This document shows, in pieces, positions 353 through 34,002 of a stretch of DNA of 64,000 nucleotides. The DNA is taken from contig JAFKAC010000051.1 in assembly GCA_025766275.1 (NCBI GenBank), positions 248,001 to 312,000 on the forward strand, read 5' to 3'. The position numbers and the translations under genes were made by a program. The DNA comes from Lactarius indigo. Lineage: Eukaryota > Basidiomycota > Agaricomycetes > Russulales > Russulaceae. The notes below the pieces were generated by a model. That model did no database searches, was not told where the DNA came from, and was given only the letters and a program-made list of their open reading frames with translations. Position 1 is the first letter of the stretch; each line of letters begins with the position of its first letter.

Positions 353-2938
353 ATGTCGACCAGTCTCCAGCCGTCCACCTCAACTCCAAACTTTCATCCG
401 ATCTTCGAGAAAGCCTTGAAAGAGTATAAGAAGAAGACCGGAAAAGAAATCTCTACCCACCCGCTCGCGGAGGAGATAAATGGCTGCGGTTCTATCGAAG
501 CCATCCTCACCGTACTTCAGGGGAAAGCCAACGAACTCAATCAATCCCAGACCAGCGACGAGCGACTCACGAAATGGCTTACGCCAACCGTGAATGTCCT
601 CGATGCTCTCTCTTCCACCCTCGGTGAAGGCGTTGGCACAGTGAGCCCCAGCGTGTTACCTGATTATCGCTTGTGTCCTAACATCAATTTCAGGTATTTC
701 CCCCAACCAAAATTATATTTTCTGCGATGAGTATCCTCCTCGTAGTGAGTTGACTCTCCGCGTTTGATAACCCTTGATAACCCCCCATTTTCCACAGGCG
801 GCTAAGGGTACCGCAGCGAGCCGCGATGTACTCATCGAGCTCTTCGAGAGAATTGAAAACTTCTTTGTACGCCTCCAGACCCACACCGAAGTCGCACCGG
901 CAGCACAGATGACGGATGTGATGGGGAGAGTGATGGCTGAAGTTCTTTCTATGCTTGCGGTCGGGACGAAGGTGATGTATCAAAGCCGAAAGAGTTAGTT
1001 TATCTTCACCGCCAAGCGTTCCCTCGCTGATATTCGCCCAGAAACATTTCTTAAGAGGCTTGTGGGAAGGAATGATATCGAGGACGCGTTGGTGAAGTTG
1101 GATAAATTGGAACAGGGGGAGCTCCGGATGGTGTCTGCGCAAGTGTTAAAGACCACGAGCGATCTGAAGGACACGACAAACGATATCAAGGACGTCACAA
1201 GTGATATCAAGGACGCTACCAGTGATATAAAGGAGGTTACCAGTGACATCAAGGACGGTGCGTAAATATTTCGTCTCGCGGGCCAATTCGTACCGAACCC
1301 CTTCGGATTAGATACGAAGGAAACAAGAGTGATGGTTCAGCAGATCGTCAGCGATGTCACATCCCGCGAATGTTCGTTTCATCGCTTCCTCACCACGAAT
1401 ACTCGTAAAGCTCACACATAATTGTAGGCGAACGGCTCCGAGGATGGTTGACCCCGCCTGATCCATCAACAAACCACACCAACGCGTGCGGCACTCAGCA
1501 TGAGAGAACTGCAGCCTGGGTTTTCGACGACAACATATTTAAGGACTGGGAGTCGTCCCAGTCGGGATCCTTATTGTGGATTCACGGCAAAGGTATGAAC
1601 GTTCCCACTCTGCGGGGACCACCTCACTGACGGCCTCTGGTTTCGTAGCCGGTTCGGGGAAGAGCATCCTCTGGTTCGCCATTCTTTCTCTCCGTATCCA
1701 GATGCTCATGTCCTCGATCAGCTCTGCAATCATCCAGCATGTCCTCACTCTGCGCGATGCTGGGTCAGCCGCCGTCGCCTATTTCTATTTCGATTTTAGA
1801 GACGTCGACAAGAAGAATTGGCGCAGCCTCATCTCTTCACTTCTAATACAACTCTGTTCTCGGTACAAGCCTTGTCTCGATTTACTCTCCCGCATCTATT
1901 CGATCTATAACGACGGAAAGGAACAGCCCAGTGAACGAACTTTGGTCCAGTGCCTCAAAGACATGCTGATGGCGCTATCCTCGTGTCAACTCCCCACCTA
2001 CATCATCCTCGATGCACTTGACGAATGTCCCAATACCTCCGGCATTCCAACTCCGCGAGAACGTGTCCTCGGACTCGTTGAAGATCTTGTTGATCTCCGT
2101 CTTCCGAATCTACGCATTTGCGTTATGAGTCGCCCCGAGATCGACATCCGGACCGCTCTCGAACCTTTGGCGTCAGGCCAGTTTTCCCTTCATGATCAAC
2201 CTGGACAGAAGAAAGATATCACTGAGTATGTCCGCGCTGTGGTCCAATCAGATAGCCGAATGAAAAGATGGAGGGAAGATGACAGAAAATTGGTTATCGA
2301 GAAACTGTCGGAGAAAGCCGATGGCATGTAAGGTGATGCTTCGTTCTTCCCAATACTTATCTTAACATTTCTCGCATAGGTTCCGCTGGGTCTTTTGTCA
2401 ACTGGAGATGTTGAAGCATTGTCTCGCTCCGAGTCTTCGGGATCAACTCAATGAACTACCGAAAAGCCTGGACGAGACGTACGAGCGGGTACTGAAAGAG
2501 ATCGAGTTGACGAACCAAGGCCGCTATGCGCGTCGTCTGCTGCAGTGCCTTGCCGTGGCTATGCGGCCGCTCCGTGTTGAGGAGCTCGCGGAGGTGCTTG
2601 CGTTTGACCTCGATACAACCAAGGCAGAAATTCCGGTGTTTCATGCGGAATGGCGGTGGGAAGACCAAGAGCAAGCTGTGTTGTCTGCTTGTTCGAGCCT
2701 TATTGCCATCGTCGGCATGGATGGTTCCCGGGTGGTCCAATTTTCGCATTTTTCTGTGAAAGAATACCTCACATCGGATCGTCTTTCCACCGCAAGCGGA
2801 GATGTCTCTCGATATTACATTGTCCCTGAATCTGCGCATTTGATAGTTGCTCAGGCCTGCCTTGGGGCTCTACTCAATTCGGATAATTGCGTCATTGAAG
2901 AGAGCGAAGAAGGCAGTATAGGGCACGATAGCACATAA
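353..2938 (+). pseudogene. NLR copy 1, 5' part (helical N-terminus + NACHT), cut by KDZ element
   Basis: Intracellular STAND/NLR receptor of the fungal type. Exons by homology with copies 2 and 3: 353-640, 694-744, 798-993, 1042-1257, 1312-1371, 1428-1592, 1649-1673, 1722-2327, 2380-2936; every splice phase closes. The N-terminal helical region starts MSTSLQP; Walker A reads GKAGSGKS across the 1592/1649 junction; Walker B is in ILDALDECP. The amphipathic TSDIKD repeat (1,141-1,257) has one more unit than copies 2/3. The frame departs from its homologues around LLNSDNCVIEESEE and stops at TAA 2936-2938, abutting the transposon TIR. Most ankyrin repeats are absent; the last ones lie 31 kb downstream. 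Probably non-functional, though a truncated NACHT protein could still be made. Confidence 0.9.
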
Positions 2939-3024
2939 TGACGCAAATAATTAACAATACATTCGTAAAACCCCATGTGCAAATGACCCTAATACATCGG
3001 TGAAACCCATGTGGGCCTACATAG
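2938..3024 (+). repeat. Left terminal inverted repeat (87 bp, imperfect)
   Basis: Pairs with 33910-33996 in inverse orientation. The first 11 bases are identical; further matching blocks are CCCATGTGCAA, TCGG(t/c)(g/a)AA(a/g)CCCATGTGGGCC and a terminal TAG. Equal lengths on both sides; roughly two thirds identity by eye. Confidence 0.88.
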
Positions 3025-5750
3025 TAAAGGCAGACGTAAATCACGAATGGGCCTATTAAATAGAGCTGCCGAATTGTTCGGATGGGGCCAGTGACATCAG
3101 CTGGAGATACCTTACCATGATAAAGAGATGGGCCCACTACACAGAAAACACTTCACAGGTGCTGCCAATAGTCTCAAATGGGCCCAATGTTATTCCTAAG
3201 TGATACTACCGAATTCCTTGAATAGGCCCAGTGCTGCCCCTGAGACACGCCGCCGACAGTCTCAAATGGGCCCGGTACTATTCCCCTGCAATGCTACCGA
3301 ATGCCTTGAACGGGCCCATAATGGCTCCTTGGACATGCTGCCGATAGGATCAAATGGGCCCAGAATTGATCCTTGGTGAAATTGATAATTGTATCGAATG
3401 GGCCCAGTGCCAATCATAAGATATGCTGCCGATGGTCTCAAATGGGCCTGATATTATCCTAAGTGACACTACCGATTTCCTTGAATGGGCCCAGCGTTGC
3501 TCTTAATAAATGCTGCCGATGGTCTCAAATGGGCCCGGTGTTTTCCTAAGTGATGCTACCGATTTCCTTGACTGGGCCCAGTGCCAATCATAAGATATGC
3601 TGCCGATGGTCTCAAATGGGCCCAGTGTTTTCCTGAGTGACACTACCGATTGCTTTGAATAGGCCCGGCGTTCCTCTCGATAAATGCTGCCGATGGCCTC
3701 AAATGGGCCTAGCATTGATACTTGGCGAAATTGCCGATTGCATTGAATGGGCCCAGTGTCAATCATAAGATATGGTACCGATGGTATCAAATGGGCCCAG
3801 TGTTTTCCTGAGCAACACTACCGATTGCTTTGAATAGGCCCAGCGTTGGTCTCAATAAATGCTGTCGATGGCCTCAAATGGGCCCAGAATTGATCCTTGG
3901 TGAAATTGACGATTGCATTGAATGGGCCCAGTGTCAATCATAAGATATGCTGCCGATGGTCTCAAATTGGCCCAGTGTTTTCCTGAGCGACACTACCGAT
4001 TGCTTTGAAGAGGCCCAGCGTTGGTCTCAATAAATGCTGTCGATGGCCTCAAATGGGCCCAGAATTGATCCTTGGTGATATTGACGATTGTATTGAATGG
4101 GCCCAGTGTCAATCATAAGATATGCTGCCGATGGTCTCAAATGGGCCCGGTAATTTCCTAAGTGACACTACCGATTGCTTTGAATAGGCCCAGCATTGCT
4201 CTTAATAAATGCTGCCGATGGCCTCAAATGGGCCCAGAATTGATCCTTGGTGAAATTGACGATTGCACTGAATGGGCCCAGTGTCAATCATAAGATATGC
4301 TGCCGATGGTCTCAAATGGGCCCAGTGTTTTCCTGAGCGACACTACCGATTGCTTTGAATAGGCCCAGCGTTGGTCTCAATAAATGCTGTCGATGGCCTC
4401 AAATGGGCCCAGAATTGATCCTTAGTGAAATTGGCGATCGTATTGAATGGGCCCAGTGTCAGTCATAAGATATGCTGCCGATGGTCTCAAATGGGCCCGG
4501 TAATTTCCTAAGTGACACTACCGATTGCTTTGAATAGGCCCAGCATTGCTCTTAATAAATGCTGCCGATGGCCTCAAATGGGCCCAGAATTGATCCTTGG
4601 TGAAATTGACGATTGCATTGAATGGGCCCAGTGTCAATCATAAGATATGCTGCCGATGGTCTCAAATGGGCCCAGTGTTTTCCTGAGCGACACTACCGAT
4701 TGCTTTGAAGAGGCCCAGTGTTCCTCTCAATAAATGCTGCCGATGGCCTCAAATGGGCCCAGAATTGATCCTTGGTGATATTGACGATTTTATTGAATGG
4801 GCCCAGTGTCAATCATAAGATATGCTGCTGATGGTCTCAAATGGGCCTGGTAATTTCCTAAGTGACACTACCGATTCCCTTGAATGGGCCCAGCGTTGCT
4901 CTTAATAAATGCTGCCGATGGTCTCAAATGGGCCCAGCATTGATCCTTGGTGAAATTGCTGATTGTATTGAATAGACCCGGTGTCAATCACAAGACATGC
5001 TGCCGATGGTCTCAAATGGGCCCAGTGTTGTTCGTCAGTAATACTACTGATTACCTTGAATGGCCAAGTGTTGCAAATGATTCGTGCTGCCGATGGTACC
5101 CCATCGACCCAGTGTCATTCCTGAGTGTCACTACCGATTGCCTTGAATGGGCTCAAAATTGCTAGCGAGATATACTGTCAACAGGCTTAGATGGGCCCAG
5201 CATTGCTTGTGAGACATGCTGCCGATGGGCTCAAATGGGCCCAGCATTGCCCCTTGATGACATCCCTGATCAACTCAATGTTGCTCATGACAAGTTATGA
5301 GGGAAAGCACCGATGGTCTTGAATGGACCCCATGTTGTTTACGAGGGATGCTACCGACAGGCCTAGCATCACTGACAAACCATATTAGGCCCATTTGAGA
5401 CCATCGGCAGCATTTCTTAAGAGCAACTCTGGGCCAATTCAATCTAATCGGTAGTATATCACTTCGGAACAAGACTGCTGACTATGTTGGCTGGGCCCAG
5501 GCATGTTCCTGTGATGCGCAGCCAACAACCTTCAATAGGCCCAGCCACCCATGGTCAGTCCTGAAATGTGTTGCTGATAGCTTTGAATGGGCTAAGAATC
5601 CTTTTAAGGGCCACCATAGATTGCCTTTAATGGCCTGAGCCCTTCCCTCCAGAGTGCTGCCGATGGTCCTGAATGGGCCCAGAATTCTATGGGAAGCACT
5701 GGCATATTTGCCTTGACATGTACCGCCTGAATGATCCCAGTGATACTCAT
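3025..5750 (+). repeat. Left subterminal array: 175-bp higher-order repeat of ~58-bp monomers
   Basis: Monomers follow the scheme TGCCGATGG...TCAAATGGGCCCAG. Three variants (TGCTGCCGATGGTCTC, CACTACCGATTGC, TTGACGATTG types) form a higher-order unit. The landmark ATATGCTGCC recurs at 3421, 3595, 3770, 3945, 4120, 4295, 4470, 4645, 4820 and 4995, i.e. spacing 174-175 throughout. Units before 3421 and after ~5000 are diverged. CTGCCGA is mostly on the + strand here, the reverse of the right array. No gene is visible. Inferred role: transposase binding sites, as in other DNA transposons with subterminal repeats. Confidence 0.93.
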
Positions 5751-5867
5751 TGTTGTCCATCGGCAGCCTATCATTCCCTGCGTTCTTGGCCGGCAAGCTA
5801 TTCTGAGCGCACTCATATGTTTTCCAATCAGAAGCTTTAACATTTGGACTATATAACACTCGATATA

Positions 5868-7219
5868 CTACACGAGGTTCTGCACCTCAGTATTGTCCAA
5901 CTCCTCGATTATTTCATCTATTACCTCACTCATTTCTTTCTCCTGCTGATAGATATTCCATACCTGGGCATGGATTCGACGATTCCTTGACCCTTCAGCA
6001 CGTAAGATGGCGGCCCTGGTGCTGAGATCAAACTCTTCTTGCTGTTGTAAAGCAGAATAGATGGTCAGTGTTGCAAAAATCGGTAGCGGAATATCCAGCG
6101 TACCAGTACCTGCTCGGGAGGATGCTGTACTTGCACATGAAGCACCTCCACACTTTCATCACCATGACCTACCGGCACCTGTGAGTTGGAGGGAGATAGG
6201 TCATTCCCACCGAAAGTTCTGACTGTATACGGTGAGCAAGGTATGCTTCATAATCAGTCAAACTGGTACTCACTGTGTGCTACCGAATGGATTCCAACGC
6301 GCTCTCCAGCCTCGGTAGGCAGGGCCAAGTCTGCCCTAATGTCTTCATTCGGCATCCCATCCTGTCGCAATGGTGCACGGGTTGTCCCCTGAGCACGGGC
6401 CCCAGGTGAGACTGGCGAGTCCATCCCAAAGTCGTCTTGAGCCATTGGCGAGGGTGGCCCATCCATACCAAAACTGTCCAGATCTTCGACCTCATGGTCT
6501 GTATATGCAGAGTAAGACATATTTTATAATCAGTCAAAATGGTACTCACTGTGTGCTGCCGACGAGATTCCTACACTCTCTCCAACCTCGGCAGGTAGGG
6601 CCAAGTCCATCTGGTACTCACCACACGCTGCCGAAGGGTTTCCTACACACTCTCTAACCTCGGCAGGTAGGGCCAAGTCCATCCCAAAGTCGTCTTGAGC
6701 TGTTGGTGAGGGTGGCCCATCCATACCAAAACTGCCCCCATCTCCCACCTCCTGAGGAGCCTCTGAGTTGGTGACGTCATGACCTTTTGGCATCTCAGAG
6801 GCACTGGAAGGTGGGGCATGCTTGCCCCATTCCCAAACTGTACATGCAGAGTTAGGGGTGAATGGAAATCAGTGAAAACGACACTTACCACGTGCTGCCT
6901 TGAGGCTGCCGATGGACCGAGTTGGCAGAGTAGGTGGAGGCGAATCCATCCCAAAGTCAGCTGGAACTGTAGGGGATGGAGATCCACCCATTCCAAAGTC
7001 GTCCTGAGCTACTGGGGATGGAGACCTGCCCATTCCAAAGTCATCCTGAGCTACTGGAGACGGCGATCCATCCATCCCAAAGCTGTGTTTACTTTCTGGG
7101 GATGACTCCCCACCCATGCCATAATCGTCTTGACCTTCGGCAGATAGAAGCGAATCTTCAATGATCCTGAGCTGTTGAGTGCTGACCAATATCGAAAGGG
7201 GAGAGCGAGATTGAGACAT
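5868..7219 (-). CDS. KDZ cargo protein 1 (DDFGMDGSPSP-repeat protein), unknown function
   Basis: Five exons on the minus strand: 7219-6889, 6837-6550, 6498-6274, 6222-6110, 6041-5868 (1,131 nt, 376 aa). Introns are 51, 51, 51 and 68 bp with GT-AG ends, and phases close. The N-terminus (MSQSRSPLSILVSTQQ) leads into repeats of the form AQDDFGM(D/G)GSPSP, then LALPAEVGE-type repeats. The last exon is charged and helical (EEFDLSTRAAILRAE...EVIDEIIEELD), possibly coiled coil. No domain recognised. The three 51-bp introns resemble one another (GTGAGTACC..TTGACTGATTAT), so exon-intron units were duplicated. Divergent from cargo gene 2, sharing a 241-bp promoter gap. Confidence 0.8.
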
Positions 7220-7460
7220 GAAAGTAGAATTTTCTGAGTGGAAATGGTCTGTGTGGAGTGGTCTGATGATGTAGCGATAAGTCGAATGAGTCGGCAATAT
7301 CTCGATTACTTATTATGCAAAGAAGAATCCATGTTCTGCTGAGTCAGGTTGTGAATGGATATTTCGGCAGCTCGGCAGCGGCACCACCCGTCACTAGCAC
7401 AACCTCAACCGACGTGGCAATTGACACCGCTGAACACATTCTTTTTTTTACTTCAACACC
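7220..7460. promoter_or_regulatory. Divergent intergenic promoter region, cargo genes 1 and 2
   Basis: 241 bp between two divergent start codons; contains TCGGCAG-type motifs (near 7291 and 7364-7374). No clear TATA box assigned. Confidence 0.5.
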
Positions 7461-9300
7461 ATGACATCTCTTCTTTCCGTCGCATCAGTGATCGAAGCTG
7501 CCGTTGCTGCTTATGTCTCAGTCCGAGACATAACTGACAGGGCAGAATGGAAATGCCACCTTGAGAAGGAGAAGGTAAGTCCTTGTTTAGGTTTCCATTT
7601 GATCTCATCCCCATTTGAGTTAGGCCAAGGCAACAAAAGTTTTTCGGCAGGTCAAGAAGGACAATTCGGGGGAGGCGCCAGCACTGCATCCCACACTAGC
7701 GGCGCTCTACATCGTATTAGACGCTGATGGTGATCTTTCAGAGATCACCAGGACAAACCCCAGCCTTAAGAGGCATAAGTATTACCAACCTGGGGCCAAG
7801 TTCCCCCAGGACATCTCGGACTTGTTGCCGAGCGAGGGTCGCTGGTGGGAAACCCTTGGTGAGTCATTACAAACTGTCTCATTTGTTTTCTCAATGTCTC
7901 CCCACAGTTGCCAAGTCTCGAAATGTGGGACCACCACCAAAGACGGTCCCACATCACCTGCCGAGGGTGAAGCTCATCCTGCCGGATCCACCTGCCGACT
8001 ATGCGGCAATGCAGGTGGATGGGTCGCAGAAGGTGAGTAATTATATCTCTATTCCGCTGATCATTCTGACTTCCTCCAACAGTTGCTAAGGGCCACCCGC
8101 AACCGAAGGCAGCGCGAAAAGGCTGCCAAAGCTGCTGCCGTGGCCGATTCAAGGAAGCGTAAGCGGCCTTCGCCTTCAGGCGACAAGGCCAAGAAGCGCC
8201 ATGCGGGGCCCTCGCGGCAGCAACGTATGCCCGCGCTCAATGACAAGGACGAGTTTGAGAGTGAGGAAGACGACAGCAAGAGCGACAGCTCCAGTGACAA
8301 TGGCTATGAAGAAGAGGATGAGATCGAGGAGGAAGACGAGATCGAGGAGGACGATGAGGAGGACGAGGAGGACGAGATCGACAACGACGACAACGACGAA
8401 GACGACGACGGCAAGGGTGAAGAGGGTGAGGGAGAAAACGAGGATGAGGGGTATAAGTTCGAGGTGCGTATTCGTTATCTTTTCATTATTCGCAGCTAAA
8501 GGAAATGTAAATAGTGCTCTTGATGCGCCCGTGCAGGGGTCGACTGCCAGACAAGGCCGACAGGGCCTTGCATTTGCTGCAAGGAGAAGAAGCAGCAATG
8601 CAGTCTGATGCCCATCAACGCGAAGACAGGCAAGGCAGATCGGCGGACGCTGACGGCCAAGCAGGTCTTCAAGTTCCGCCTCGAGCAGCTCAAGGGGAAG
8701 CAGCCGAGGCGCGGGGTCAGGGTGGGTTCAAACTCGGTAGCGTTGGCCTCAAGGATGGTTGGGAGGATGAAGCTGGACAGCGGGTCATCTCATGGCCATT
8801 CTCGCTCGGCAGCTTCAGTTTCACCATCTGCAGCTGAGTCGCCTGTCCCACCCTCTGCAGAGCTGTTCCCTGCTGTTGACGCAGCTGCCGAGCCCTCTGT
8901 CCCTACTCCCGCTTCCATTCCCATTATCTCTGCCACCGCCGCCCCTTCCACTGTTGCCGCCGTTCCTCCTACCACTGCCGCCGCCATTCCCCCTGCCGCC
9001 ACCACTCCCATTCCCCCTACCCCTGCCGCCGACTCTCCTGTTCCCATCGACGACCACTCCCCTTCCATAGCCCCCGCTCTCCGTCGGCACGTGTCATCGA
9101 AGAGGAAGAAACTCGTGCCATATGTCTTGGTGCCGAACCCACCACCCTCGGTCTCCTCCTCGCGAAAGCAAAGCTCTGCCGCCCAGGAGTCGCAAGCGCC
9201 ATCTCCCAGCAGCGGCAGCATGGAGGCCTTGGAAAGAAGGGTAGCTGCAATTGAAGAATGGATACGTGCGCAAGATGAGAACTGGAAGGGCGGATTGTAA
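7461..9300 (+). CDS. KDZ cargo protein 2 (acidic tract, Cys cluster, coiled-coil C-terminus)
   Basis: Exons 7461-7574, 7651-7858, 7908-8032, 8083-8463, 8551-9300 (1,578 nt, 525 aa); all phases close. Order: N-terminal region MTSLLSVASVIEAAV; basic KRKRPSP/KKRH stretch that could be a nuclear signal; ~75-residue Asp/Glu tract (8,250-8,450); Cys-rich PCICCKEKKQQC just after the last splice (about residues 282-293), possibly metal binding; Ala/Pro-rich linker; short C-terminal helix MEALERRVAAIEEWIRAQ. The last acceptor (CTGCCAG, 8544-8550) is chosen because the earlier GTGCAG gives a stop after 23 codons. Likely nuclear DNA- or chromatin-associated (inference). No named family recognised. Confidence 0.75.
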
Positions 9301-9910
9301 GGCCTTTTTCATTTTCGGCATCTTTTTTGTCCTGTTCACTATTTCTCTCTGCCTCGGTATCTCTTTACATACTTGTCTCAAATCTAGCTAGTTCACTGCC
9401 CTACTGTACCATTTCTGTATCAAATTCAATCTCCATTTGCTGTCTTGTTTCGCCCTGCGTGATTGTGAGTTGGTTGTAATGTTTCAGCAGCTGTTCAGAG
9501 CTGGTCAAATAACTCACAAGCGGTCTGATTTTATCGCTTAGAGTCGGCGGAGGATTCCTCAGCGTTTGAGAATGTCTACCTCCCCAAATATTTTCAGATC
9601 TCCGAAATCTTATTTACCAAGGCAGCAAAAATGTTGGCTTGAGCTGCCACAACACTAGATCATTGTCAAGGCATTTAATGGCGCTGAAAATTTGCACAAC
9701 ACGTGTATAGATAGATATTTACGTTACACTCTGAGAGACGCTTGGTACGAGTGAGAATTCAGAAAAGGGATGTGAGGGAGATACTAATCATCTGCAGCGG
9801 TGCATGCCCCTTGCTCCTCCTCCTTCTAGCGACCCACTCTGGTCCTGGCAGACATGCCGCTGCTCCTATTGGACACATTCACCTTCTAGAGTCAATGAGG
9901 AAGCTATCAC
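9301..9910. other. Gene-free gap between convergent cargo genes 2 and 3
   Basis: 610 bp of AT-richer sequence holding the 3' ends of both genes; no ORF, RNA or repeat array could be supported. Confidence 0.5.
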
Positions 9911-12083
9911 TTACTGAATTTGCTTAGCCCGCTCAGTAGGCCGCGTTACGCGCGCTGAGCGCCAAGTGTCATTCTGTGCATTTGTCAAACGGCGATCAAC
10001 TTTCTGGCGCTTGGAGGGGGGGGTATCGGCAGTTGCCTGAGTGAGAGGCCCTGAGTTTCAAGGCGCTAGATTGAATTTAGGTCACTTACATGGTCATCAG
10101 GGGAGCGTTCCTGGGCAGGACCCGCCCTTGAGCTGCCGATGGGAGCTGGGTGCTGCATGATGATGCGAGGGTGAGGGTGAGGGCGAGTGCAGGTGCGGGT
10201 GTGAGGAGGTGGAGGAGGTGGTGGGGGGTTGGGAGGGTGTGGGGGCAGAATTCCCCCATCTTCTTGCATCGGCAGCTCCTCATGAGGCTGCTGGCCATTG
10301 GCGCTCTGGTGGGGGTGAGGCCAGAGTTACAGAAACATAAGGGAGCTCAGCTACTTACACTGCTTGGACTCCCAGCACCATCTTCTTGGCTTTGTCCATT
10401 AGACCCACCCCCGGTTGAATGCTCACCATCATAATGCCTGTTAGCCTTATCCACTTTCTTGAAGCGGAATGGGATCTCGCCGGCAGCTCGCCTCTGTATC
10501 CAGTGCTTGAGTAGGGAGTTGGCATCATCGAGACGAATGTGATGGTATTGTGTCAGAGTGACCCCCTCCGGCAGGTACTCAGCAGCGATAAAGTCGCCTT
10601 GGGCCGCATGTATTCTGGCCCATGGGACCCTTCCCTTGCACCCACCAGCAGCAATCCCTGAAAATCAGATAACTGGCTAGGTCGGCAACAGGGAACTGTA
10701 GTTCACTCACGGTACATCTCACTCATGAACTTGCCAATGACCACCTTCTTGTACATGAGGCCCTCGCGATCAATGTCTTCCCATTTCGGCAGCACAGGGT
10801 ACCCATTTTCGTCCATCGGCAGCTTCACCTTAGGGGTTTTATCCTTCCTTTTTCTGTCCTCTTCACCGCTATCAGCGGGGTATTCCCCTACAAAGGTGTC
10901 ATGTTAGTACATTTCTCTTGAAGTGAAATAAACGCCGACCAAAAGACTCGGCAGTCCATCTTGAGAACTCCTCAACCAGTGGGTCCTTTGACCAGCCTTT
11001 GTACCGGGCTTTGAAAGAAGTTCCGCCCAGCTCGTCATTGTTGTCATAGCTATTTGATAGGTTGTTAGATTGTAAGTAGATTGTAAGTAGATAGCTTTGT
11101 ATACGCACAACATGATCGAGGGTCCGTCATCATCACAATACCCCCCCAAAATAGCAACGCGCACTCCATATTGGCGGTACATGGTCTCAGAAAAGTCCCG
11201 GATTGTATGAATACCGTGCTTCTCAAACATCCTTGGTGAGATTTAGTCAACTTCCATCTGGTAAATGATCGGCATGTACATACCGCTGCTGCTGCCGAGG
11301 AGGTACACCTTGCTCTGCCCATTTCTTCGCCTCTGCTCGGTACTTCACCCGTGTGTCTTCATCCAACCTTTCGTCAATTAACTTCACAGCCTTCCTGTAA
11401 CAGCCAAGGTAGCTTCGTGATCCTGACGTTGACCCAGACATTTCAACAGCCATCTTGTCCAGTTCCTGCCGGTGATGGTCAATCAAAATGTCGTGATATG
11501 TCCATCGTTTGCGACGAAAGCTGAATCTTTTGCGCTCCTGTCGGCACTTGTTGTAAAGGTACCGGCGGACAAGCTGCAAAATATCAGGGCTGGACAATGT
11601 AGCCAAGAGTGCACATACTGTTTCTACGACCTTTCTATCAAATTCGGCGCCTTGTCGCCAGTGTCTCTCAATGCGGTCCACCGAATCTTGGACGATTTTT
11701 AACCGACCATCTGCATCGGCAGCTCTGAACTCGGCAGTGTGCTTCTGCAACATGCTCGCTTGTTCATCTGTGATTTCAATGTCCTGCTTTGAGGGGCTGT
11801 GAAGTGACATCAACAGAGGGCATTTGCATAAATACAATGGTTATACACACCTTTCTTCACTTGTGGCACCTCCCACCTCGTCCTCAAGATCGGCAGCGAG
11901 CCAATGTAACTCGCCAGATGCGATTGACCCGAAGTCAGAAGATGGATACGAGCCCTCAGACTCTAGACCTGAGTCATAGTCTTCGTCTGAAGTTTCATCA
12001 TCTGACAGAGCCGCGTCCTTCTCCCCCTTACTGCGATCCACAGAGTTGGGCTTAGCACCTTTCTTGGTTGTTTTTCCAGGCAT
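9911..12083 (-). CDS. KDZ cargo protein 3, large unknown protein (598 aa)
   Basis: Eight exons on the minus strand: 12083-11851, 11796-11284, 11231-11109, 11049-10940, 10887-10711, 10657-10359, 10305-10090, 10036-9911 (1,797 nt). Seven introns of 52-59 bp, all phases close. N-terminus basic then acidic (LSDDETSDEDYDSGLESE); middle region helical and charged with RRYLYNKCRQERKRFSFRRK and a block MFEKHGIHTIRDFSETMYR followed by GVRVAILGGYCDDDG; then KGWSKDPLVEEFSRW, a Pro-rich stretch, and a basic C-terminus PPSKRQKVDRR. The middle block resembles a family of uncharacterised agaricomycete proteins I have seen near KDZ genes, but I cannot name it. One 5' splice site reads GTCGGC (10939). Divergent from the TET gene across 170 bp. 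Confidence 0.78.
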
Positions 12084-21337: not shown

Positions 21338-21363
21338 GGAGAGTTGACGTAGAGAGGGGCTCA

Positions 21364-23595: not shown

Positions 23596-26500
23596 ATGGC
23601 ACCCAAAGGTATAAAGGCATCCAAAGTCTTCCAGAGAAAGTCTAAGGCCAAGATAATCGACTGGGTGACTCGGGAGGGCTCTCGAGGAACTAGAAGCGTC
23701 CCAGTTGAAGTGATCACCTCAACAGATTTGCCGGTACCGAGGAGAGGTGCTGGTGGAAGAGAGATAGACAATCATGAGGCAACTTTGCATGAAACTGATC
23801 CTCCAGCTATGGATATCGACGACACATTCTGGATAGAGGAGCCAGAACAGAAAAGAGTGAGTTCACTCACACGTCTGTCCTTGACAGTAATTGACATGTC
23901 TCAGTCCCAACGTACCTATATGGAGGAGTTTATTCCTAGGATTGGCCCTTACCTGCGCTGCCTCCTCGATTCTGAGGGCGTCCCTGCTATGACAACGTGT
24001 CAGAGCTGCATGTCTGCTCCATTTGAGTGGAGGTGCACTGAATGCTTTCCTACTCTGGTGCTCTGCAAGGAGTGTTGCCGAAAGTCCCACCAGCGGCTCC
24101 CTTTCCACAGGGTCCAGAGATGGACAGGAAAATACTTTATTTCATCTTGGATGCGGGAGGTTGGGGTAAGCTTGCGTCTTGGACACTCTGGAGATTTATG
24201 CCCCAATCAATTGAATCAAAGCGTGCGTTGCGAATCCTTTTATATTTTAAATCACATCCCAATCGATACAGTCACAGATGGACTGCGACGATGAAGACCG
24301 CCAGGTCGGCAGCCAAAATGAATATGACACAGCTGCTGACTTTGGCTTCGGCACAGCTGCCGACCTTGGTTTCAACAACTCAAAACCTGGTCGTCGTGAC
24401 AAAGACGGAAACCCAATCATTACTGTTATTGATAGGTCTGGTGTTCATGATATTGGTGTCAGCTGGTGCTGCTGCCCTGAAGCTCCCGAGCACGACATGC
24501 AGTTGATGACGGCAGGGCTCTTTCCAGCTACATTTCGCAACCCAAGGACAGCATTTACCTTCCGGGTGCTAGAAGACTTCCATTTGGATAATCTTGAATG
24601 CAAGACAACTCCGAGCCAGTTTTTCAGTCGCCTAAGGAGACTCACAAATGATGAGTTTCCGAATACAGTGCCGGTAGGAGGATTTACAAGCCTATCTGCC
24701 GACGGTAAACTAAGTGGAATACTTAGGACCGATATCGGGAGCTTCTGAGGGCCTGCCGACAGTGGAGAGTGCTCATTTCCCGAAAGCGATTTGGTTTTGG
24801 GTATGGAGGGGATGAAGAACAGAAGTCAGGATCGATGGCTATATTTTGTGCTTTGTGTGCACAACCCGGGATCAACCTCCCTGAAGATTGGAGAGAGTAT
24901 GAAAATAGGTGCGTTAATAGACATCAGTACCTGGCAGCTGCCGACATATATCACTTTAGCGACGTCCTTTTTATGTGAGGTTTCATGATGGATGGCAACT
25001 TCCAGGCAGAGCACATGAAGATGAGAAATCCAGAGAATGATATTCCACTTTCCGAAGGCACAGGGTTCATGGTCAGCCGAGAACCATATGAATCGCATCT
25101 GAAATCGGCAGTTGAGAGGCGGCAGGTCGGTACTACATCTTGTATTTCAGCAGAGGAAAGCTCACACTCAAGCAGAGGTCGACATGCCATGATCACCGTG
25201 CAGTAAATAATGTAAACAAGCATAGCTCACACCTTGAATCAACTGGAATCGGCGCCACAGCCTGTATTCATGGGGCCTTTGTCCCTGATTCTGTTGTTGA
25301 CTTTCAAAAGGGAGAAGCGTGAGTTTTCATATTTATCAATATATGCTAGGTGAAAACCAACCTCCAAAAGCCAGAAGAACATGGACTACTCCATTTTCAA
25401 GGCCCTTAACTTTAATATGGAGGGAATAGAGGCCGCCCTCATCTGCTACAATGTTATGTGTCAATGGAGTGTTCATATGGCGGAGAGGGTTGTTGGCAGC
25501 AACTATCTTGAACTTCCCGATAACCTGGAGCTTAGGTTGGGCATTGGCCTTTTTCACATACACGGACACCAAGATACCTGCTTAGCTAGGTACTCACCCA
25601 GCTTTATCAAAGGTGGACAACAAATCGATGGCGAGACCATTGAAACACTTTGGGCTCCGCTCAATGAGATCACTAGAAGCACAAGGGGGATGTCAACATC
25701 ACACCGTAGGGAGGTCATAGACGACCACATGAACGACTCCAATTGGAAAAAACTTATCGACCTAGGCAAGTTCTTTCCTATGGATGCCACACCGGTGCTC
25801 ACTCTGGTTGTGTAGTCAATGCCGTGTCTAGACGCTACCGAAAGGCACTTTCGGCAGCTATGCTGAGCACGGCAGCATTTGAGTCCATAAGTGCATCGGC
25901 AAGTCCAGAACGTATTAAGGCTTGGGGTGCCGAAGAGGAGCACGCACAAAGGGAGCGAGGTCGTGATGTAAAAGTGATGGACATCTATGACATCAAGATG
26001 AAACGATGTGGGTCTGGTTGCTCCGTGATTGTTTTTGCCTAACATGAGGATTCAGTCCCATCGCGTGCAGAAATACTTCTTGATTTGACAGAGAAGGAGA
26101 TAGAGGGCTCTGGCCATAAGGGGCATGCTACGTGGCTCAGTAGCGGGTTGAAGATTCAGGAGACGCAGTATGATTTTCGGCAGCTTTCTGAGGGAGACTT
26201 CTGATCATGGTTTCACAAAAAATGTAGGTTATCCCTTCAAGCACTGGAAAGGAAGATTGGGTCCCATCCAACACCAGATCAACAAAGGGATATTGCCTTG
26301 AAGCGTGCTCGGCTTCAAGAAAGAGTTGACACGTTCCAAAAGCAGGCGGCTAACATTCTCCGGGCTTCCCCTGACAGTGGAGGTGACTCCTGGGATAACA
26401 CCCCTTTAAGAGAAAGATATATCGGCATCGAATTTGATGGCATTGGTGAAGGAGAAGACGATGACAAGTGTGCATCATCTGCCGAAGAACATGATCAATT

Positions 26501-27365
26501 GCAAGTATCAGGAAATAACTCCACTGACGGCAGTATTGATGCAGAGTATATCCCATTGCATCTCCCCTCACATCTCGGATATGACTGGTGTGACAAAAAT
26601 GGTGCTGAAGACCTGGCGAAGGCGGAACTTCACCTAAGGGAGGGCCAACTCAATGACTCTCTGCATCATATTCGCATTGCCCTGGGACACAAATCCTATC
26701 TGTTCAGACATGACGTTCGTCCAGCACGTACACAGAGACTCAAAACGCGTGCTTGGACAGAGGTGCATGCTGCCGAGTCAACTGTTCAACATCATGCTCG
26801 GGTGTATACTTGTGCACGGCAAGCAATAGTAGACCTTGGCGCCGGCAGCTCTCTCCTTGACAGGTACAAAGTCTTGAGGCGCCAGGACTTGAGTGTCAAG
26901 ACAAGCGTAATTGCACCCCATGTACGTGGACAACGGAACAAATCATTGCCTTGGTTTTGGACAATGGATGTTCGGAGAGATGCCGACGTTGGGGAATGGA
27001 TGGAAGATTGTACGGGCTACTCTGTTCATACATGCTTAAGAAATCTAACACTCCACACAGTCTACCGGGTCCATTGGCTTCGAGCAAAAGCTCAAAAAAT
27101 GCGGTGGATTGAAGAGCTTCAGTGTCTCCAAGTCGAGATGGACTCTGCCATTAGGTTCTTCAGGCATCAAGAGAAATTTTGGCAAGCAAAGAAGGAGCTC
27201 ATTGAGCCCCAGTCACAGCCGGGGCATGCTGTGTGGGCAGCAAGACAAAGCGCTATGTGGAGTTCAATGGCTGTCCAGGCGGGGTCCAAGTTTACTGCTT
27301 TGCTTAAGAGTGACCCACCTCCTGAGTTTGCCAAGGTCCTACTACAGCCAAAAACGAGTAGATAA
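23596..27365 (+). pseudogene. KDZ transposase, nearly complete but carrying apparent inactivating lesions
   Basis: DDE/RNase H-fold transposase expected to cut and paste the whole element. Exons: 23596-23856, 23905-24222, 24272-24673, 24727-24908, ~24980-25125, 25173-25318, 25371-25765, 25816-26007, 26056-26167, 26228-27009, 27061-27365 (about 1,079 aa if repaired). Markers: CxC2-type Cys cluster (residues ~119-155: CQSC, CTEC, CKECC), DRYRELLR, MMDGNFQAEHM (first acidic residue), YNVMCQW, HIHGHQDTC, IDGETIETLW, and C-terminal VRGQRNKSLPWFW and YRVHWLRAKAQKMRW. Odd points: the 25766-25815 intron is GC-AG; exon 4 to 5 cannot be joined in frame (TGA 24976-24978 if unspliced, one extra base if spliced at GAG 24979); the motif normally YDxMCQ has Asn (AAT 25450-25452). 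Family assignment is firm; inactivity is inferred. Confidence 0.92.
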
Positions 27366-27850
27366 AATTATTCAAATACATACAGTAATCTCAACTAGTC
27401 GTCGGTAGTCATTGGGGGCTAAAATATCGGCAGCATCCAATGGCAAGTTGTGCTTGTTTCTATCTACTAAGGGAAGCCATGTGGACAGTGGAATCGCTGC
27501 CGATGACGTTGTATTGGCCAATAGCTGGCAGGGAACTGGCAAACAACATCCTCACATGGGCCCACAGAACCCATCGTGTTGACCCAAAGTTGTTGGGAGA
27601 GCTGCCGAGTGTAGGCCGATGGGTTAAGCTGCCGAGCCAACACCTCATATGGGCCTATAGTCTCTGTCTATGGCCACCCATTGGCCTATAGAACCCATTG
27701 CGCTGGTCTAAAGTTGTCGGGAGAGCTGCCGAGCATGGTCCCAGGATCACGTGTATGATTTGGTGGCGTAACCCTACCTTAGATTATTAGGACTCATAGG
27801 CAGCTTCCAAAGGCAATATCACACTCCATTCACGTCACACACTACATACT
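27366..27850. other. Gene-free stretch with dispersed element repeats
   Basis: Contains short diverged repeats (GGGAGAGCTGCCGAG twice near 27,597 and 27,720; ATGGGCC- and CCCATTG-type words) resembling the subterminal arrays. Upstream region of cargo gene 5; no ORF supported. Confidence 0.55.
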
Positions 27851-28542
27851 ATGTCAGCTGAAACAGGCACCTCTATATTAGATGCTGTGCTCACCTGCAT
27901 CGGCGAGAGAATATCCTCTATCTTGCTCAACTCTGCCGATAAAGATGAAAAGTATATCGCCAGCTTACACAATGAAGTGGCAAGCATTAATTTTCCATCC
28001 AAAACAAGTGGAACACATTCTGATTAGAATTTGGATTTAGCTTGCTGCCGTATGGGTCACTGGCCTTTTATCGTCTAGCGGCAGCCCCCCTCATGTGCCA
28101 GAGGCAGTCAGGATTGCCTTTCACCATTTTTCGGACATCAGGAACCCGGCATCCTATGCAGCACATGATGCAGACCAGAGGCTGAAATGCAAGATTGAGG
28201 CATTAGCCATTCCACGATTTAAACTTACGGAGTGGTGGAAAATTGGAGAAGGGGTGACGATGAAAGAACCATTTGATGTCCGCGATGAGTTAGTAGCAGA
28301 GTTGTTGCGTGCTCTAGAGATGGTATGCACCCTGCTTCATTTACAAGTCCTCAAAGTAACTGGAACTGCAGCAGGAAGCTGGCTCAAGTCTTCGCACTAG
28401 GGTAACAGAAAGGTTCAAACAAGCTCGGCAGCTGTCCAAGAATATCGAGAGCTGCCGCGATTCCATTTATCGCATGTTCAATGATACTTATCGCAGTTTT
28501 GAGGCAGAGGCTAACCGTTTGGAGAATGAAAACTCTGGTTGA
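27851..28542 (+). CDS. KDZ cargo protein 5 (191 aa, helical), unknown function
   Basis: Exons 27851-27976, 28041-28322, 28375-28542 (576 nt); both introns (64 and 52 bp) are phase 0. N-terminus MSAETGTSILDAVLTC; middle LAAVWVTGLLSSSGSPPHVPE and a helical block with RFKLTEWWKIGEG; C-terminus RTRVTERFKQARQLSKNIES is charged and could form a coiled coil. The first acceptor (GATTTAG, 28034-28040) was chosen because it gives an uninterrupted frame. Convergent with cargo gene 6, 34 bp apart. No family recognised. Confidence 0.68.
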
Positions 28543-28576
28543 CGATTACTGTAGTTCTACACATCACAGAATACGA

Positions 28577-29089
28577 TTACAGCTGCCGATCCTCCCCAAT
28601 GAAGGCGTCTGCCATAACCATCTCATTGTCCAAATCACGCAGAAGTTCCTCCAATAGTTCGATCTTCTCTGATTGCTTATCTTTCAGGAGGTTAGCTCGA
28701 TCTCTGGCAATTGAAAGCCATCGTGGAGAGACACCCTTTGGAGGATCCTGGATTGTTTTAGCTGATGTCAATCAGATGACACTTGAGTTACCTTGTCAAT
28801 GAGCTTTCCAATCACAGGTTGTAAGAGTGTCACACTTTTCGGGACCTCGCTGAAACCTTCGGCATCTGCTGTTGGGCCGGAGGGTCCCACCATTCCTTGC
28901 TGGTGTTGACCCACATCAGACTCCATTCCATTGAGGAGTTTGACCCCATTCCAGAATGCAGATCGCATCTATAGGCATCGGCTCAGCGTTCTAGTAAAGC
29001 ATTAGTTTTGATACACACACCGCCTCCTTGAAGCTGTTCTCCTCTGACTCATAGACACCTTGTTTTATCTCTGAGGACTTCCCCTGCAT
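28577..29089 (-). CDS. KDZ cargo protein 6 (138 aa), unknown function
   Basis: Exons 29089-29021, 28968-28792, 28747-28577 (417 nt); introns 52 and 44 bp, all phase 0. Start chosen at MQGKSSEIKQGVYES because it splices cleanly into FWNGVKLLNGMES. The C-terminal half is an amphipathic, heptad-like helix (LLKDKQSEKIELLEELLRDL), probably a coiled coil for oligomerisation. Nothing more can be said of its role. Confidence 0.68.
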
Positions 29090-29752
29090 GGTTGATAGAT
29101 TGTTGATCGGATATCAGTAGATGTCCCTCACAGTATGACATCATAAGCGCTTATGTACACATGCGGATCTATGAATCTGAAACAAGTTACATGGGGTGGC
29201 AACAATCTATATCCCCTTCTGATTAGTTGGAATGGGCCAAAAGCGAGAGAACTGCTGGGTTAGACATGAGAGCTGCCGGGTTAGACATGAGAGCTGCCGG
29301 GATAGACACATGAGCTGCCGAGCTGGATACAAGAGCTGCCGGGCTAGACACTGGCATAGGCCAGCCATATGTTTGTGTTTTGACTGCCGGCTGAACAAAT
29401 TAAGCCCACGCAAGCAGCACGCATAACACCCAATAATCTTCCCTGAAACATCTTCTGAAACGTGCCTGTGTGGGTCAATGGAATCTATGTGTGAGCTCCC
29501 AACAAACTTGCGGCAGCCCCAACAATATGCCGGCAAGTGAAGCGCTTGCCTGGCCCATATAGTACACCCACACACACTGCCGATGAAACTAGATTCCCCT
29601 AATAGGATGTTTCACAATATATCTATCTGCATAGTTGATAATTATGGATGGACATACCCAGGCCACGCTCCTACTGTTTCCTCCTATATATACTCCCGAC
29701 ACCTCTTGCCTTCGATCCATAAGACCATTGACACCACCCTTCCTCTGTGACC
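29090..29752. other. Intergenic region with a short minisatellite
   Basis: About five ~20-bp units of the type GAGCTGCCGGGTTAGACAT lie at 29,260-29,352. They embed the element motif CTGCCGG/CTGCCGA. The rest is upstream sequence of cargo gene 7 with a possible TATATATAC near 29,685. Confidence 0.7.
29260..29352 (+). repeat. Minisatellite, ~20-bp unit, about five copies
   Basis: Units alternate GAGCTGCC(G)GG with TTAGACAT / ATAGACACAT / CTAGACAC. An antisense open frame across it (RQLSCLT repeats) is a by-product. Confidence 0.8.
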
Positions 29753-31417
29753 ATGTCAACTTCCAATCTCAGTCTAACCCAGGACGAACAAACTCTTCAC
29801 CACTATGCAGCTATGCTCGAGAAGGAACTAGAAGCCTATCATGCATGCATACCTAGAGATGAAAAGGTGTGGAGGAAGAAATTCAGAACGCACTTGGTAT
29901 TCTAGTCTTCCTACAATCCACTTCTATAAGCTGAGCTGAGGTCTATACAGAAGACTTCAGTGGACTATTATTTTGGTGCCAATAGAAGAGGCTCTGTACC
30001 TCCCCGCATTCACCCACTGTTGTTAAGCCTCATGGAAGTGATCAGAGAGGGTGGAACCTCCGTGAAAATAAGTTCAGTCTCAGTGAAGGATCCAAGGATT
30101 TTGATGAGCAACTATTATACTTCACCAACGGATCTCCCACCACTGAATATACATTTACCAGGCCAAAATGGTGTGGATCCTCTCTCTGACATTCATGTCT
30201 GTCGACTGACATCGGCAGCTTCTTGTCAAGAATGCATGGACAGTTTGGCATCAGTAGGCGGCATGATGATAAATATGCCATCGGCAGCTTCCAGTCCAGC
30301 TCCTATAGCACCTGGGCATCAAGAAAATCCAGCAGGTGGAAACATAATGACTACCTCAGTGGCAGCTTCTGGTCTAGAACCTATGGCATCTGAACCTCAA
30401 GAGCCCTCGGCAGAGATAGGCAATCCAAGAGCCCCTATTCCCAGGAGGAAGAAGGATTCGTATGCGTCTGGTAGTGGTGTTCGCAGTGAGTCCTGAATTT
30501 TGTCATGCAGATGTGTTGAGGAATAAAATTGCCAAAGAAATTGTTACCAGATCGGCAGCAAAAAGGAGTGCTGCCGATGACACTGGTGAAGCAGCTATCA
30601 GCACTACATACAAGACTAGGAGGCGTGCAGGAGTTAATAATCCGAGTGCAGCTAGGCCAAATATCAAGGGTAAGGGAGAACGGGATAAGAGGACAAGCTC
30701 AAGAAAGGGCAAGCCTCTACACCCAGAAGAGGACCCTGACAACTGGGAGGATGAAGCTCAACCTCTCAATAAACCAATGGGGGGAACCAATGAGGAGGCG
30801 TCGCCAGGTGCATTAGGTCTAGCTTCCATTGGTTCTATGCTCATCACATTTACCGGCAGCTAAAGAAATTGTTACCAGATCGGCAGCAAAAAGGAGTGTT
30901 GCCGATGGTATTGGTGAAGCAGCTATCAGCACTACATACAAGACTAGGAGGCATGCAGGAAATAATAATCCAAATGCAGCTAGGCCAAATATCAAAGGTA
31001 AGGGGAAACAGGATATGAAGACAAGCTCAAGGAAGGGCAAGCCTCTACACCCAGAAGAGGACCTTGACAACAACCGGGAGGTCGAAGCTCAACCTCTCAA
31101 TAAACCAATGGAGGGAACCAATGAGGAGGCATCGCCAGGTGCATTGGGTCTAGTTTCCATTGGTTCTATGCTCACCACATCGATCGGCAGCTGAAGGCAA
31201 AGATAACAATAATATAGTTAAACAGCTCGAACGGGAGGTCCAGAGTCTAAAGGTCAGATGTGACTGGCAAGAGAAAACAATTAAGGATCTGAAATCCAGA
31301 TGCGATAGCCATGAGAAGGTCCTTGAGTCACTTCGGCAGCAAATTGTGGGTCTCCATGAGAGAGGGAAGAGCCTGAATACTACATATTTTGGGGAGAACT
31401 ATGATCTCATGCCATAG
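29753..31417 (+). CDS. KDZ cargo protein 7 (480 aa) with tandem-duplicated exon and coiled-coil C-terminus
   Basis: Exons 29753-29896, 29951-30485, 30538-30807, 30866-31138, 31197-31417 (1,443 nt); phases close. N-terminus MSTSNLSLTQDEQTLHHYA, then KTSVDYYFGANRRGSVPPRIHPLLL, then Ser/Ala/Pro-rich sequence. Exons 3 and 4 are diverged copies of one ~90-residue basic module (IVTRSAAKRS...TTYKTRR...SSRKGKPLHPEED...NEEASP), duplicated with the 58-bp intron that follows. The last exon is a heptad coiled coil (VKQLEREVQSLKVRC...KTIKDLKSRCDSHEKV). Basic modules suggest nucleic-acid contact and the coiled coil oligomerisation; both are inference. Lies next to the right array. Confidence 0.8.
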
Positions 31418-31439
31418 CTACACTCCTCATACCAATATA

Positions 31440-33909
31440 GGCTCATCAGCAGGATGAATGCATGGGTATTGCAGGTCAATACATGCTTGTCAGAAGAGTA
31501 CAGATATGAACACTGTGAGCCAACTTCATTGGAAGAAGAAACTGCAGGCCAATACAAGCACATCGGCAGGACGCACACATCGGCAGAATGGGCCAGTACA
31601 AGCTCATCGGTAGGATACATACCTTGACACCATGGGCCAATACAAGCTATTCGGCAGAATACACACGCTTCTACCATGGGTCAATACAAGCTCGTCGGCA
31701 GCATGTACACTTTGGCGCCATGGGCCAATATAAGCCATTCAGGAGAATAGACACACAAACTCCATGGGGCAATACAAGCTCATCAGCAGAATATGTATAT
31801 AAGTACAGCAGGCCAATACAAGCTCATCGACAGAATACACACATCGGTGGCATGGGCCAATACAAGCTGTTCGGCAGAATTCACCCATGGGAAGAATAGG
31901 CCAATACGAGCTTGTCAGTAGAATACATACATAGGCACCATGGGCCACTACAAACCCATCGGCAGCATGTACACATTGGCAGCATGGGCCAATACAAGCT
32001 GTTCGGCAGAATTCACCTTTGGGAAGAATGGGCCAATACAAGCACTTCGGCAGAATACATACATGAGTACAGCGGGCCAATACAAGTTCATCGACAGAAT
32101 ACACACATCAGCGCCATGGGCCAATACAAGCTATTCGGCAGAATTCACCCATGGGAAGAATGGGCCAATACAAACTCATCGGCAGCATGTACACATTGGC
32201 AGTGTGGGCCAATACAAGCTGTTCGGCAGAATTCACCTATGAGCAGAATGAGCCAATACAAGCTCTTCGGCAGAATACATACATGGGTACAGCGGGCCAA
32301 TACAAGCTCATCGACAGAATACACACATCGGCACCATGGGCTAATACAAGCTATTCGGCAGAATTCACCCATGGGAAGAATGGGCCAATACAAGTTCGTC
32401 GGCAGAATACATACATGAGCACCATGGGCTAATACAAACTCATCGGCAGCATGTACACATTGGCAGTGTGGGCCAATACAAGCTGTTCGGCAGAATTCAC
32501 CTATGGGCAGAATGGGCCAATACAAGCTCGTCGGCAGAATACATACATGAGTACAGCGGGCCAATACAAGTTCATCGACAGAATACACACATCGGCGCCA
32601 TGGGCCAATACAAGCTGTTCGGCAAAATTCACCAATGGGCAGAATGGGCCAATACGAGCTTGTCAGCAGAATACATACATGAGCACCATGGGCCACTACA
32701 AACCCATCGGCAGCATGTACGCATCGGCAGCGTGGGCCAATACAAGCTATTCGGCAGAATTCACCCATAGGAAGAATGGGCCAATACAAGCACTTCGGCA
32801 GAATACATACATGAGCACCGTGGGCCAATACAAGCCCATCGGCAGCATGTACACATTGGCAGCGTGGGCCAATACAAGCTATTCGGCAGAATTCACCCAT
32901 GGGAAGAATGGGCCAATATGAGCTTATCGGCAGAATACATACATGAGTACCGTGGGCCAATACAAACCCATCGGCAGCATGTACACATTGGCAGTGTGGG
33001 CCAATACAGGCTGTTCGGCAGAATTCACCAATGGGCAGAATGGGCCAATACGAGCTTATCAGCAGAATACATACCTGAGCACCATGGGCCACTACAAACC
33101 CATCGGCAGCATGTACGCATCGGCAGTGTGGGCCAATACAAGCACTTCGGCAGAATTCACTCATGGGAAGAATGGGCCAATACAAGCACTTCGGCAGAAT
33201 ACATACATGAGCACCGCGGGCCAATACAAGCTATTCGGCAGAATTCACTCATGGGAAGAATGGGCCAATATGAGCTTGTCGGCAGAATACATACATGAGT
33301 ACCGTGGGCCAATACAAACCCATCGGCAGCATGTACACATTGGCAGTGTGGGCCAATACAAGCTGTTCGGCAGAATTCACCAATGGGGAGAATGGGCCAA
33401 TATGAGCTTGTCAGCAAAATACATACATGAGCACCATGGGCCAATACAAACCCATCGGCAGCATGTGCACATTGGCAGCGTGGGCCAATACAAGCTGTTC
33501 GGCAGAATTCACCTATGGGCAAAATGGGCCAATACAAGCTCGTCGGCAGAATACATACATGAGCATCGTGGGCCAATACAAACTCATCGGTAGTATGTAC
33601 ACATCGGCAGTGTGGGCCAATACAAACTGTTCGGTAGAATTCACCCATGGGCAGAATGGGCCGATACAAGCTGTTCGGCAGAATTCGCTCATGCAAAGAA
33701 TGGGCCAATGCAAGCTCGTCGGCAGCATGCGCACCTTGGCAGCATGGGCCGATTACAATCTCATCGGGACAAATGTCACAGGTGCATTGTGGGCCCATGC
33801 AAGTGATTCGTTCGGCAGCTATCCTACCAGCAGTACAGATAATGTGGGCCCACACGAGACTGTTTGCAGACAAGCCTGATGGGCCCATACGAATATATGC
33901 ACATTATAT
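31440..33909 (+). repeat. Right subterminal array: strictly phased 44-bp monomers
   Basis: Monomer TGGGCCAATACAAGCT(C/G)(A/T)TCGGCAGAAT... with variants ending CACCCATGGGAAGAA, ACATACATGAGTACAGC, ACACACATCGGCGCCA or the GCATGTACACATTGGCAG type. GGCAGCATGT recurs at 31961, 32181, 32445, 32709, 32841, 32973, 33105, 33325 and 33457: all spacings (220, 264, 264, 132, 132, 132, 220, 132) are multiples of 44. About 50 monomers; the last ~130 bp are diverged. TCGGCAG on the + strand here is inverted relative to the left array. Long ORFs on both strands are artefacts of the repeat. Probable transposase binding region (inference). Confidence 0.93.
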
Positions 33910-33996
33910 CTACAATGGGCCCACATGGGCTTTGCCGACTGACACGGCACAATTGCACATGGGCTTTACCGAGTCTATCGCAAGGATTTGCGTCAT
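33910..33996 (-). repeat. Right terminal inverted repeat (87 bp, imperfect)
   Basis: Inverse of 2938-3024, ending ATTTGCGTCAT at the transposon boundary. Confidence 0.88.
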
Positions 33997-34002
33997 GGGC
34001 TC

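What the first reader, a model, noticed from the sequence alone, without database searches (positions are those of the whole stretch)
2938..33996. A 31-kb KDZ 'cargo' transposon carrying a TET/JBP DNA oxidase and seven unknown genes, bounded to the base
Inverted termini ATGACGCAAAT, 87-bp TIRs, paired subterminal arrays and a KDZ transposase define one element enclosing nine gene models. The general KDZ-TET/JBP link in mushrooms is published (established knowledge). The defined ends, two-arm array design and full cargo set are read here. The seven unknown genes have mostly intact splice phases although the transposase is broken, which suggests recent mobility or use of the cargo.
Basis: partly seen in the sequence, partly recalled or inferred. 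Interest (0 to 1): 0.95.

Follow-up and report, generated by a model that had tools for sequence, protein, structure and literature searches.

The report
Milk-cap mushroom transposon carrying TET enzyme
A 23-kb mobile DNA element of the mushroom Lactarius indigo, swollen here to 31 kb by a second transposon that landed inside it, carries a DNA-demethylating type of enzyme next to its transposase together with a fixed set of unknown genes that look like its own parts and not borrowed cargo.

Summary
The element is real, but its true ends lie 6 bp further out on each side (window 2932-34002): 7 of 7 other two-ended copies read carry a perfect 7-bp target duplication there. The genome (Lactarius indigo, inferred) holds 18 distinct left/right end pairs. 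The 31 kb includes a recent 7.9-kb Ty3/Gypsy insertion; the element proper is about 23.1 kb. The window copy is odd: no target duplication, about 1.9 kb of its NACHT-like/ankyrin target gene missing, stops in the transposase and g2. 'Cargo' is the wrong word: g2-g3-TET-KDZ-gR keep order and strand at 17 of 17 family-1 TET loci and at 18 of 22 diverged ones; the inserts in five copies are LTR retrotransposons. Each end carries about 50 inverted copies of a 44-bp-spaced motif. 116 of 134 private substitutions are CpG transitions, so copies are probably methylated. Best reading: an autonomous multi-gene Kyakuja-like KDZ transposon whose TET counters host methylation. TET-bearing Kyakuja is published; the gene kit and two-arm arrays were not found in the papers searched.

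The parts
2932..34002 (+). whole element, window copy, with nested retrotransposon; no target duplication (ACGATAG / GTGGTAC)
2932..2948 (+). left terminus CACATA + ATGACGCAAAT
   Evidence: shared by the left ends of all copies read; two copies have ATGACACAAAT
33986..34002 (-). right terminus ATTTGCGTCAT + GGGCTC
   Evidence: shared by the right ends of the copies read; one single end (L042) has TTGTGTCAT
3160..5152 (+). left subterminal array, motif CTGCCGA-N10-TKGGCCCA on the + strand, 43-44 bp spacing
31547..33767 (-). right subterminal array, same motif on the - strand, 44 bp spacing
5871..6949 (-). g1, unknown, repetitive protein; extent approximate
   Evidence: gene model on copy C112 mapped to the window; weak relatives in L043
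7461..9303 (+). g2, unknown, Zn2Cys6-like cysteine pattern; premature TGA at 8521 in this copy
   Evidence: Zn_clus only below cut-off in relative P0049
9911..12083 (-). g3, unknown, 583 aa in the public model of this copy (P0003); extent approximate
12269..13558 (+). TET/JBP dioxygenase (AG-type residues); 5' end uncertain
   Evidence: PF12851; CcTet match 8.5e-31; exons
13998..21941 (+). nested Ty3/Gypsy retrotransposon, not part of the element; duplication GTGCT at 13993-13997 and 21942-21946
22295..23200 (+). g5, weak gene model, matches only in family-1 copies; extent approximate
23896..27362 (+). KDZ transposase with CxC2; premature TGA at 24976 in this copy
28113..28322 (+). g6, weak gene model (part)
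   Evidence: not tested in family 2
28580..29068 (-). g8, small unknown gene
29930..31196 (+). gR, unknown, coiled-coil-like; extent approximate

Best explanation
This is one copy of a multi-copy, recently active DNA transposon of the KDZ group (Kyakuja-like) in Lactarius indigo. Shown: common ends, 7-bp target duplications, and a gene set (g2, g3, TET, KDZ transposase, g8, gR) that stays co-linear across two diverged families. Inferred: these genes are the transposon's own working parts, not captured host cargo. The transposase cuts at CACATA/GGGCTC and inserts with 7-bp duplications; an element-encoded DNA-binding protein (the transposase's CxC2 region or the zinc-cluster-like g2) docks on the about 50 inverted motif sites at each end; TET oxidises methylated CpG on the element and so delays the CpG methylation whose mutational footprint the copies show. 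The window copy is a decayed, rearranged member: stops in transposase and g2, a retrotransposon inside, no target duplication and about 1.9 kb of the target gene missing, most simply by recombination between two insertions or by a later deletion.
For: 7-bp duplications in 7 of 7 other two-ended copies read. 18 distinct end pairs. Order and strand of g2, g3, TET, KDZ, gR kept at 17 of 17 family-1 loci and 18 of 22 others, nearest match within 45 kb; g8 at 17 of 17 and 20 of 22. Family-2 left terminus upstream of 18 of 22 loci, control pattern 0 matches. Interior of family-1 copies differs by few bases apart from inserts. All five inserts examined are LTR retrotransposons. Motif arrays in opposite orientation at the two ends, recurring in two diverged left ends. 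CpG footprint: 116 of 134 private substitutions; CpG observed/expected 0.54-0.61 in element and retrotransposon against 0.96-1.08 in four host stretches. TET matches CcTet with HRD, Ser at the Gly331 place and Asp at the Asp337 place.
Against: No function was tested. The CpG footprint shows that TET does not fully protect the copies, and the arrays are not visibly spared. The nested retrotransposon, which has no TET, has a similar CpG deficit. g2 is only zinc-cluster-like (Zn_clus E 0.37, below cut-off, in P0049; none in P0039). Four of 22 non-family-1 loci lack part of the set. g5 was not found outside family 1. The 3' end is TC and not the TG given for Kyakuja.
Confidence: 0.7

Rival explanations
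1. A cargo transposon in the Starship sense: the unknown genes are host genes picked up and carried along.
For: The element is large and most of its genes have no known family.
Against: Same order and strand in two diverged families; g2 and g3 relatives listed lie in Lactarius only, several on contigs that also hold KDZ; the variable DNA is retrotransposons.
Confidence: 0.1
2. The arrays serve transposition alone (transposase docking and end pairing, as subterminal repeats do in CACTA elements), and TET acts without any sequence targeting.
For: Arrays sit at both ends in inverted orientation; subterminal repeats of CACTA elements are established (recalled; listing); arrays not spared from CpG change.
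Against: About 50 sites per end over 2 kb is more than end recognition seems to need; inference only.
Confidence: 0.5
3. The co-linearity reflects recent shared ancestry only, and several of the unknown genes no longer function.
For: Stops occur in g3 of C68 and in g2 and KDZ of the window copy; g5 not found in family 2.
Against: Proteins of the two families differ by roughly 20-60% while little non-array noncoding DNA of left end L043 aligns; in g2's last exon 25 of 42 differences between subfamilies are at third codon positions.
Confidence: 0.1

Closest known systems
TET-bearing Kyakuja transposons of Agaricomycetes (Kojima 2025, PMC12730594; parts 1-4 of 7 read, and passages)
   Same: KDZ transposase with TET/JBP gene, 7-bp target duplications, AG-type TET residues; Russulales are listed as having TET-bearing Kyakuja only
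   Different: Published ends are CA..TG without TIRs, here CACATA..GGGCTC with an 11-bp inverted motif set in by 6 bp; no gene kit or subterminal arrays in the parts read (terms 'accessory' and 'subterminal' 0 occurrences, Lactarius 0; supplement not seen)
VANDAL/VANC anti-silencing system of Arabidopsis (PMC5735166, PMC10398659; abstracts and outlines)
   Same: Transposon with an anti-silencing gene and tandem-repeat target arrays in noncoding DNA
   Different: VANC is no TET; KDZ against MuDR-type (the latter recalled); no binding shown here
CACTA/En-Spm elements with subterminal repeats and TnpA (recalled; listing with abstract starts)
   Same: Large element, repeats inside both ends
   Different: Other transposase class; 7-bp and not 3-bp duplications (3 bp for EnSpm)
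Starships of Pezizomycotina (search listing with abstract starts)
   Same: Large fungal mobile elements with many genes
   Different: Tyrosine recombinase and cargo; here a KDZ transposase and a fixed gene set

Membership tests
KDZ transposons | KDZ transposase domain with CxC cysteine cluster | tested here: met
   PF18758 and PF18803 above cut-off
Kyakuja | 7-bp target duplication | tested here: met
   7 of 7 other two-ended copies read; the window copy has none
Kyakuja | 5'-CA..TG-3' termini, no TIRs (as given for the Laccaria families) | tested here: not met
   CA at the left but TC at the right, and an 11-bp inverted motif
Kyakuja | transposase placed in the Kyakuja branch of a tree | not tested
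   no published sequences at hand; I therefore say Kyakuja-like
AG-type TET/JBP | HxD, Gly or Ser at position 331, Asp at 337 of CcTet | tested here: met
   alignment to CcTet, criteria
AG-type TET/JBP | oxidation of 5mC | not testable with these tools
   needs the enzyme
Starships | cargo that varies between copies | tested here: not met
   gene set fixed, inserts are retrotransposons
Starships | tyrosine recombinase captain | not tested
   not searched for by itself; Pfam on the ORFs given showed none
VANC-like targeted anti-silencing | element protein that binds the arrays and lowers methylation | not testable with these tools
   only the arrays are shown

The most novel reading that the evidence does not exclude
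A sequence-addressed DNA demethylation system: an element-encoded DNA-binding protein (g2 or the CxC2 region) reads the about 100 motif sites at the two ends and brings the element's own TET there, a fungal, enzyme-based counterpart of plant VANC anti-silencing.
Probability: 0.2. Interest if true: 0.85.

Novelty: new variant of a known kind. Interest (0 to 1): 0.58.

Why it matters
Published work places TET genes in KDZ transposons but calls their function unvalidated. Here one genome has 39 TET matches, 38 with a transposase beside them, near-identical copies, defined ends, a TET-less copy (C11) and a strong CpG footprint. That makes testable whether such a TET keeps its own element unmethylated and whether the end arrays direct it. 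A fixed kit of six genes turns 'cargo' into parts of one machine.

Tried and rejected
Rejected: host-gene cargo. Rejected: arrays spared from CpG change (right array 22 of 638 CpG-type sites changed, interior 95 of 3849; left arrays misalign and are uninformative; the window copy gave no alignment over the 98.5% limit and dropped out). No duplication for the window copy; its two flanks match no other end read. Pfam gave nothing over cut-off for g1, g2, g3 and gR frames or for P0001, P0012, P0021, P0039, P0044, P0049. A Kyakuja tree was not attempted. Gene models come from a small gene finder of mine trained on 15 ORFs; g5 and g6 are weak. I do not call family-2 copies broken where stops fall inside six-frame matches, since introns are read through. 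Rows dropped: three fragments at the edge of contig C251, and the two pieces each of C73 and C113 counted as one locus; one of two left ends that share a right end on C1.
Full report
Host. The window is contig C239 of a 90.3-Mb assembly. A g3 relative named Lactarius indigo (P0003) lies on a contig of 430,182 bases, the length of C239. I take the host to be Lactarius indigo; no call states it outright.

Ends. The 87-bp left end has 32 matches in the genome, 28 of them full length at 94-100%; the right end has 31 matches at 94-100%. They form 19 left/right pairs; two share one right end on C1, so 18 are distinct, 18-42 kb long. I read six whole copies besides the window (C201a, C201b, C112, C90, C68, C11) and both ends of C50. 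Single ends on different contigs share 7-bp flanks (C236 left with C251 right, C228 left with C241 right), probably one copy each split by assembly gaps.

The window copy. It has no duplication. Its flanks match two tandem paralogs in the window; between the matching points the paralogs hold 1,981 and 1,965 bp, against 39 and 27 bp left over in the window, so about 1.94 kb is missing. The left flank reads as NPHP3_N (with NACHT below cut-off) and a winged helix, the right flank as ankyrin repeats. Recombination between two insertions or a later deletion would explain both facts; I cannot tell which. The Ty3/Gypsy element 13998-21941 is absent from C112, C201a, C201b, C90 and C68. C201b, C90 and C11 hold other Gypsy-type inserts and C68 a Copia-type one; in C11 the stretch from g3 to the start of the right array is gone. 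C112 and C201a have no insert.

Genes. Open frames, differences between subfamilies and a simple gene finder give g1(-), g2(+), g3(-), TET(+), g5(+, weak), KDZ(+), g6(+, weak), g8(-), gR(+). Public proteins support g3 and KDZ. In this copy KDZ and g2 each have a CGA to TGA change against C112; C68 has one in g3. The public model of this copy's transposase matches KDZ best at positions 140-217 (two stretches, E 1.7e-31), that of another copy at 5-217 (1.9e-50). Intact copies exist.

Not cargo. A family search finds 39 TET matches: 17 family-1, 21 family-2 (71-80% identical to the window's) and one at 59%. At the 17 family-1 loci g2, g3, KDZ and gR are present in the expected order and strand, 17 of 17; at the other 22, 18 have all four, KDZ 21, gR 20, g2 and g3 19 each (nearest match within 45 kb, a generous limit). 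g8: 17 of 17 and 20 of 22. The terminus pattern read from L043 and L044 has 25 matches against 0 for the reversed control; 18 of 22 non-family-1 loci have one upstream, and 7 of the 25 have no TET. g5 matches only family-1 copies. In other species g3 and KDZ proteins share a contig in L. hengduanensis, L. sanguifluus, L. deliciosus and L. pseudohatsudake, g2 and g3 in L. psammicola and L. pseudohatsudake, judged by species and contig length, with 11 KDZ rows picked by hand from 120 listed. All 38 g3 and 18 g2 relatives listed are Lactarius; about 8000 candidates were scored in each. KDZ relatives are wider: 178, of which 120 listed. The genome also has at least 175 KDZ matches, many far from any TET.

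Arrays. CTGCCGA-N10-TKGGCCCA was read from the family-1 arrays. With up to 3 mismatches it occurs 48 times on + and 3 on - in the left arm, 52 on - and 1 on + in the right arm, and 12 times elsewhere in the window, partly inside the element; base-shuffled element DNA gives 0.6 per 17.3 kb (20 shuffles). Spacing is mostly 43-44 bp on the left, 44 bp on the right. It recurs in diverged left ends L043 (12) and L044 (7); L044 shows no match to the g2 and g3 proteins tried.

Methylation footprint. Among six family-1 copies (C11 only partly covered) over 18.1 kb between the arrays, 134 private substitutions: 125 are C to T or G to A, 116 of these at CpG; per-site rate 0.084 against 0.0007-0.0018 at other C. 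Rates per 1.5-kb bin run 0.009-0.023 without clear trend. CpG observed/expected is 0.61 in the core, 0.54 and 0.58 in the arrays, 0.54 in the retrotransposon and 0.96-1.08 in four host stretches. This fits methylated copies losing CpG by deamination; it does not show methylation directly.

Mechanism. Shown: mobility of the family, gene order, arrays, footprint, TET residues. Inferred: TET acts on the element; an element protein binds the arrays. That TET counters silencing of its own transposon is Kojima's proposal. The VANC parallel is an analogy.

Novelty. Searches for Kyakuja (12 papers), Kyakuja/Dileera/Zisupton (11), Lactarius with transposable and KDZ (0) and TET with Coprinopsis (102, 10 listed) showed, in titles and abstract starts, no account of this kit or of the arrays. 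Subscription papers, including the 2014 KDZ paper (recalled), and Kojima's supplement were not seen.

Noticed in passing
window 13998-21941: Recent Ty3/Gypsy retrotransposon with chromodomain, LTRs 577/578 identical, long open frames; C68 holds LTR-length matches to it (about 580 bp) at another place.
   Followed up: partly
window 1-2931, 34003-34326, 41149-46247, 51608-56710, 63739-64000: Tandem family of NACHT-like/ankyrin genes; the element sits in one of them.
   Followed up: partly
window 30531-31196: About 335-bp direct duplication (90%) inside gR.
   Followed up: no
G000 contigs C236/C251 and C228/C241: Ends with equal 7-bp flanks suggest that these contigs join through one element copy each.
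   Followed up: no
C11 copy, L035-L036: Copy with both ends and a target duplication but without g3 to gR, Gypsy insert in their place.
   Followed up: partly
L044 (G000:C17): Same kind of left terminus and 44-bp array, but no match to g2 and g3: a related element with other content.
   Followed up: partly
P0083, Sparassis crispa: Single 1479-aa protein with CxC2, KDZ and Tet_JBP domains.
   Followed up: no
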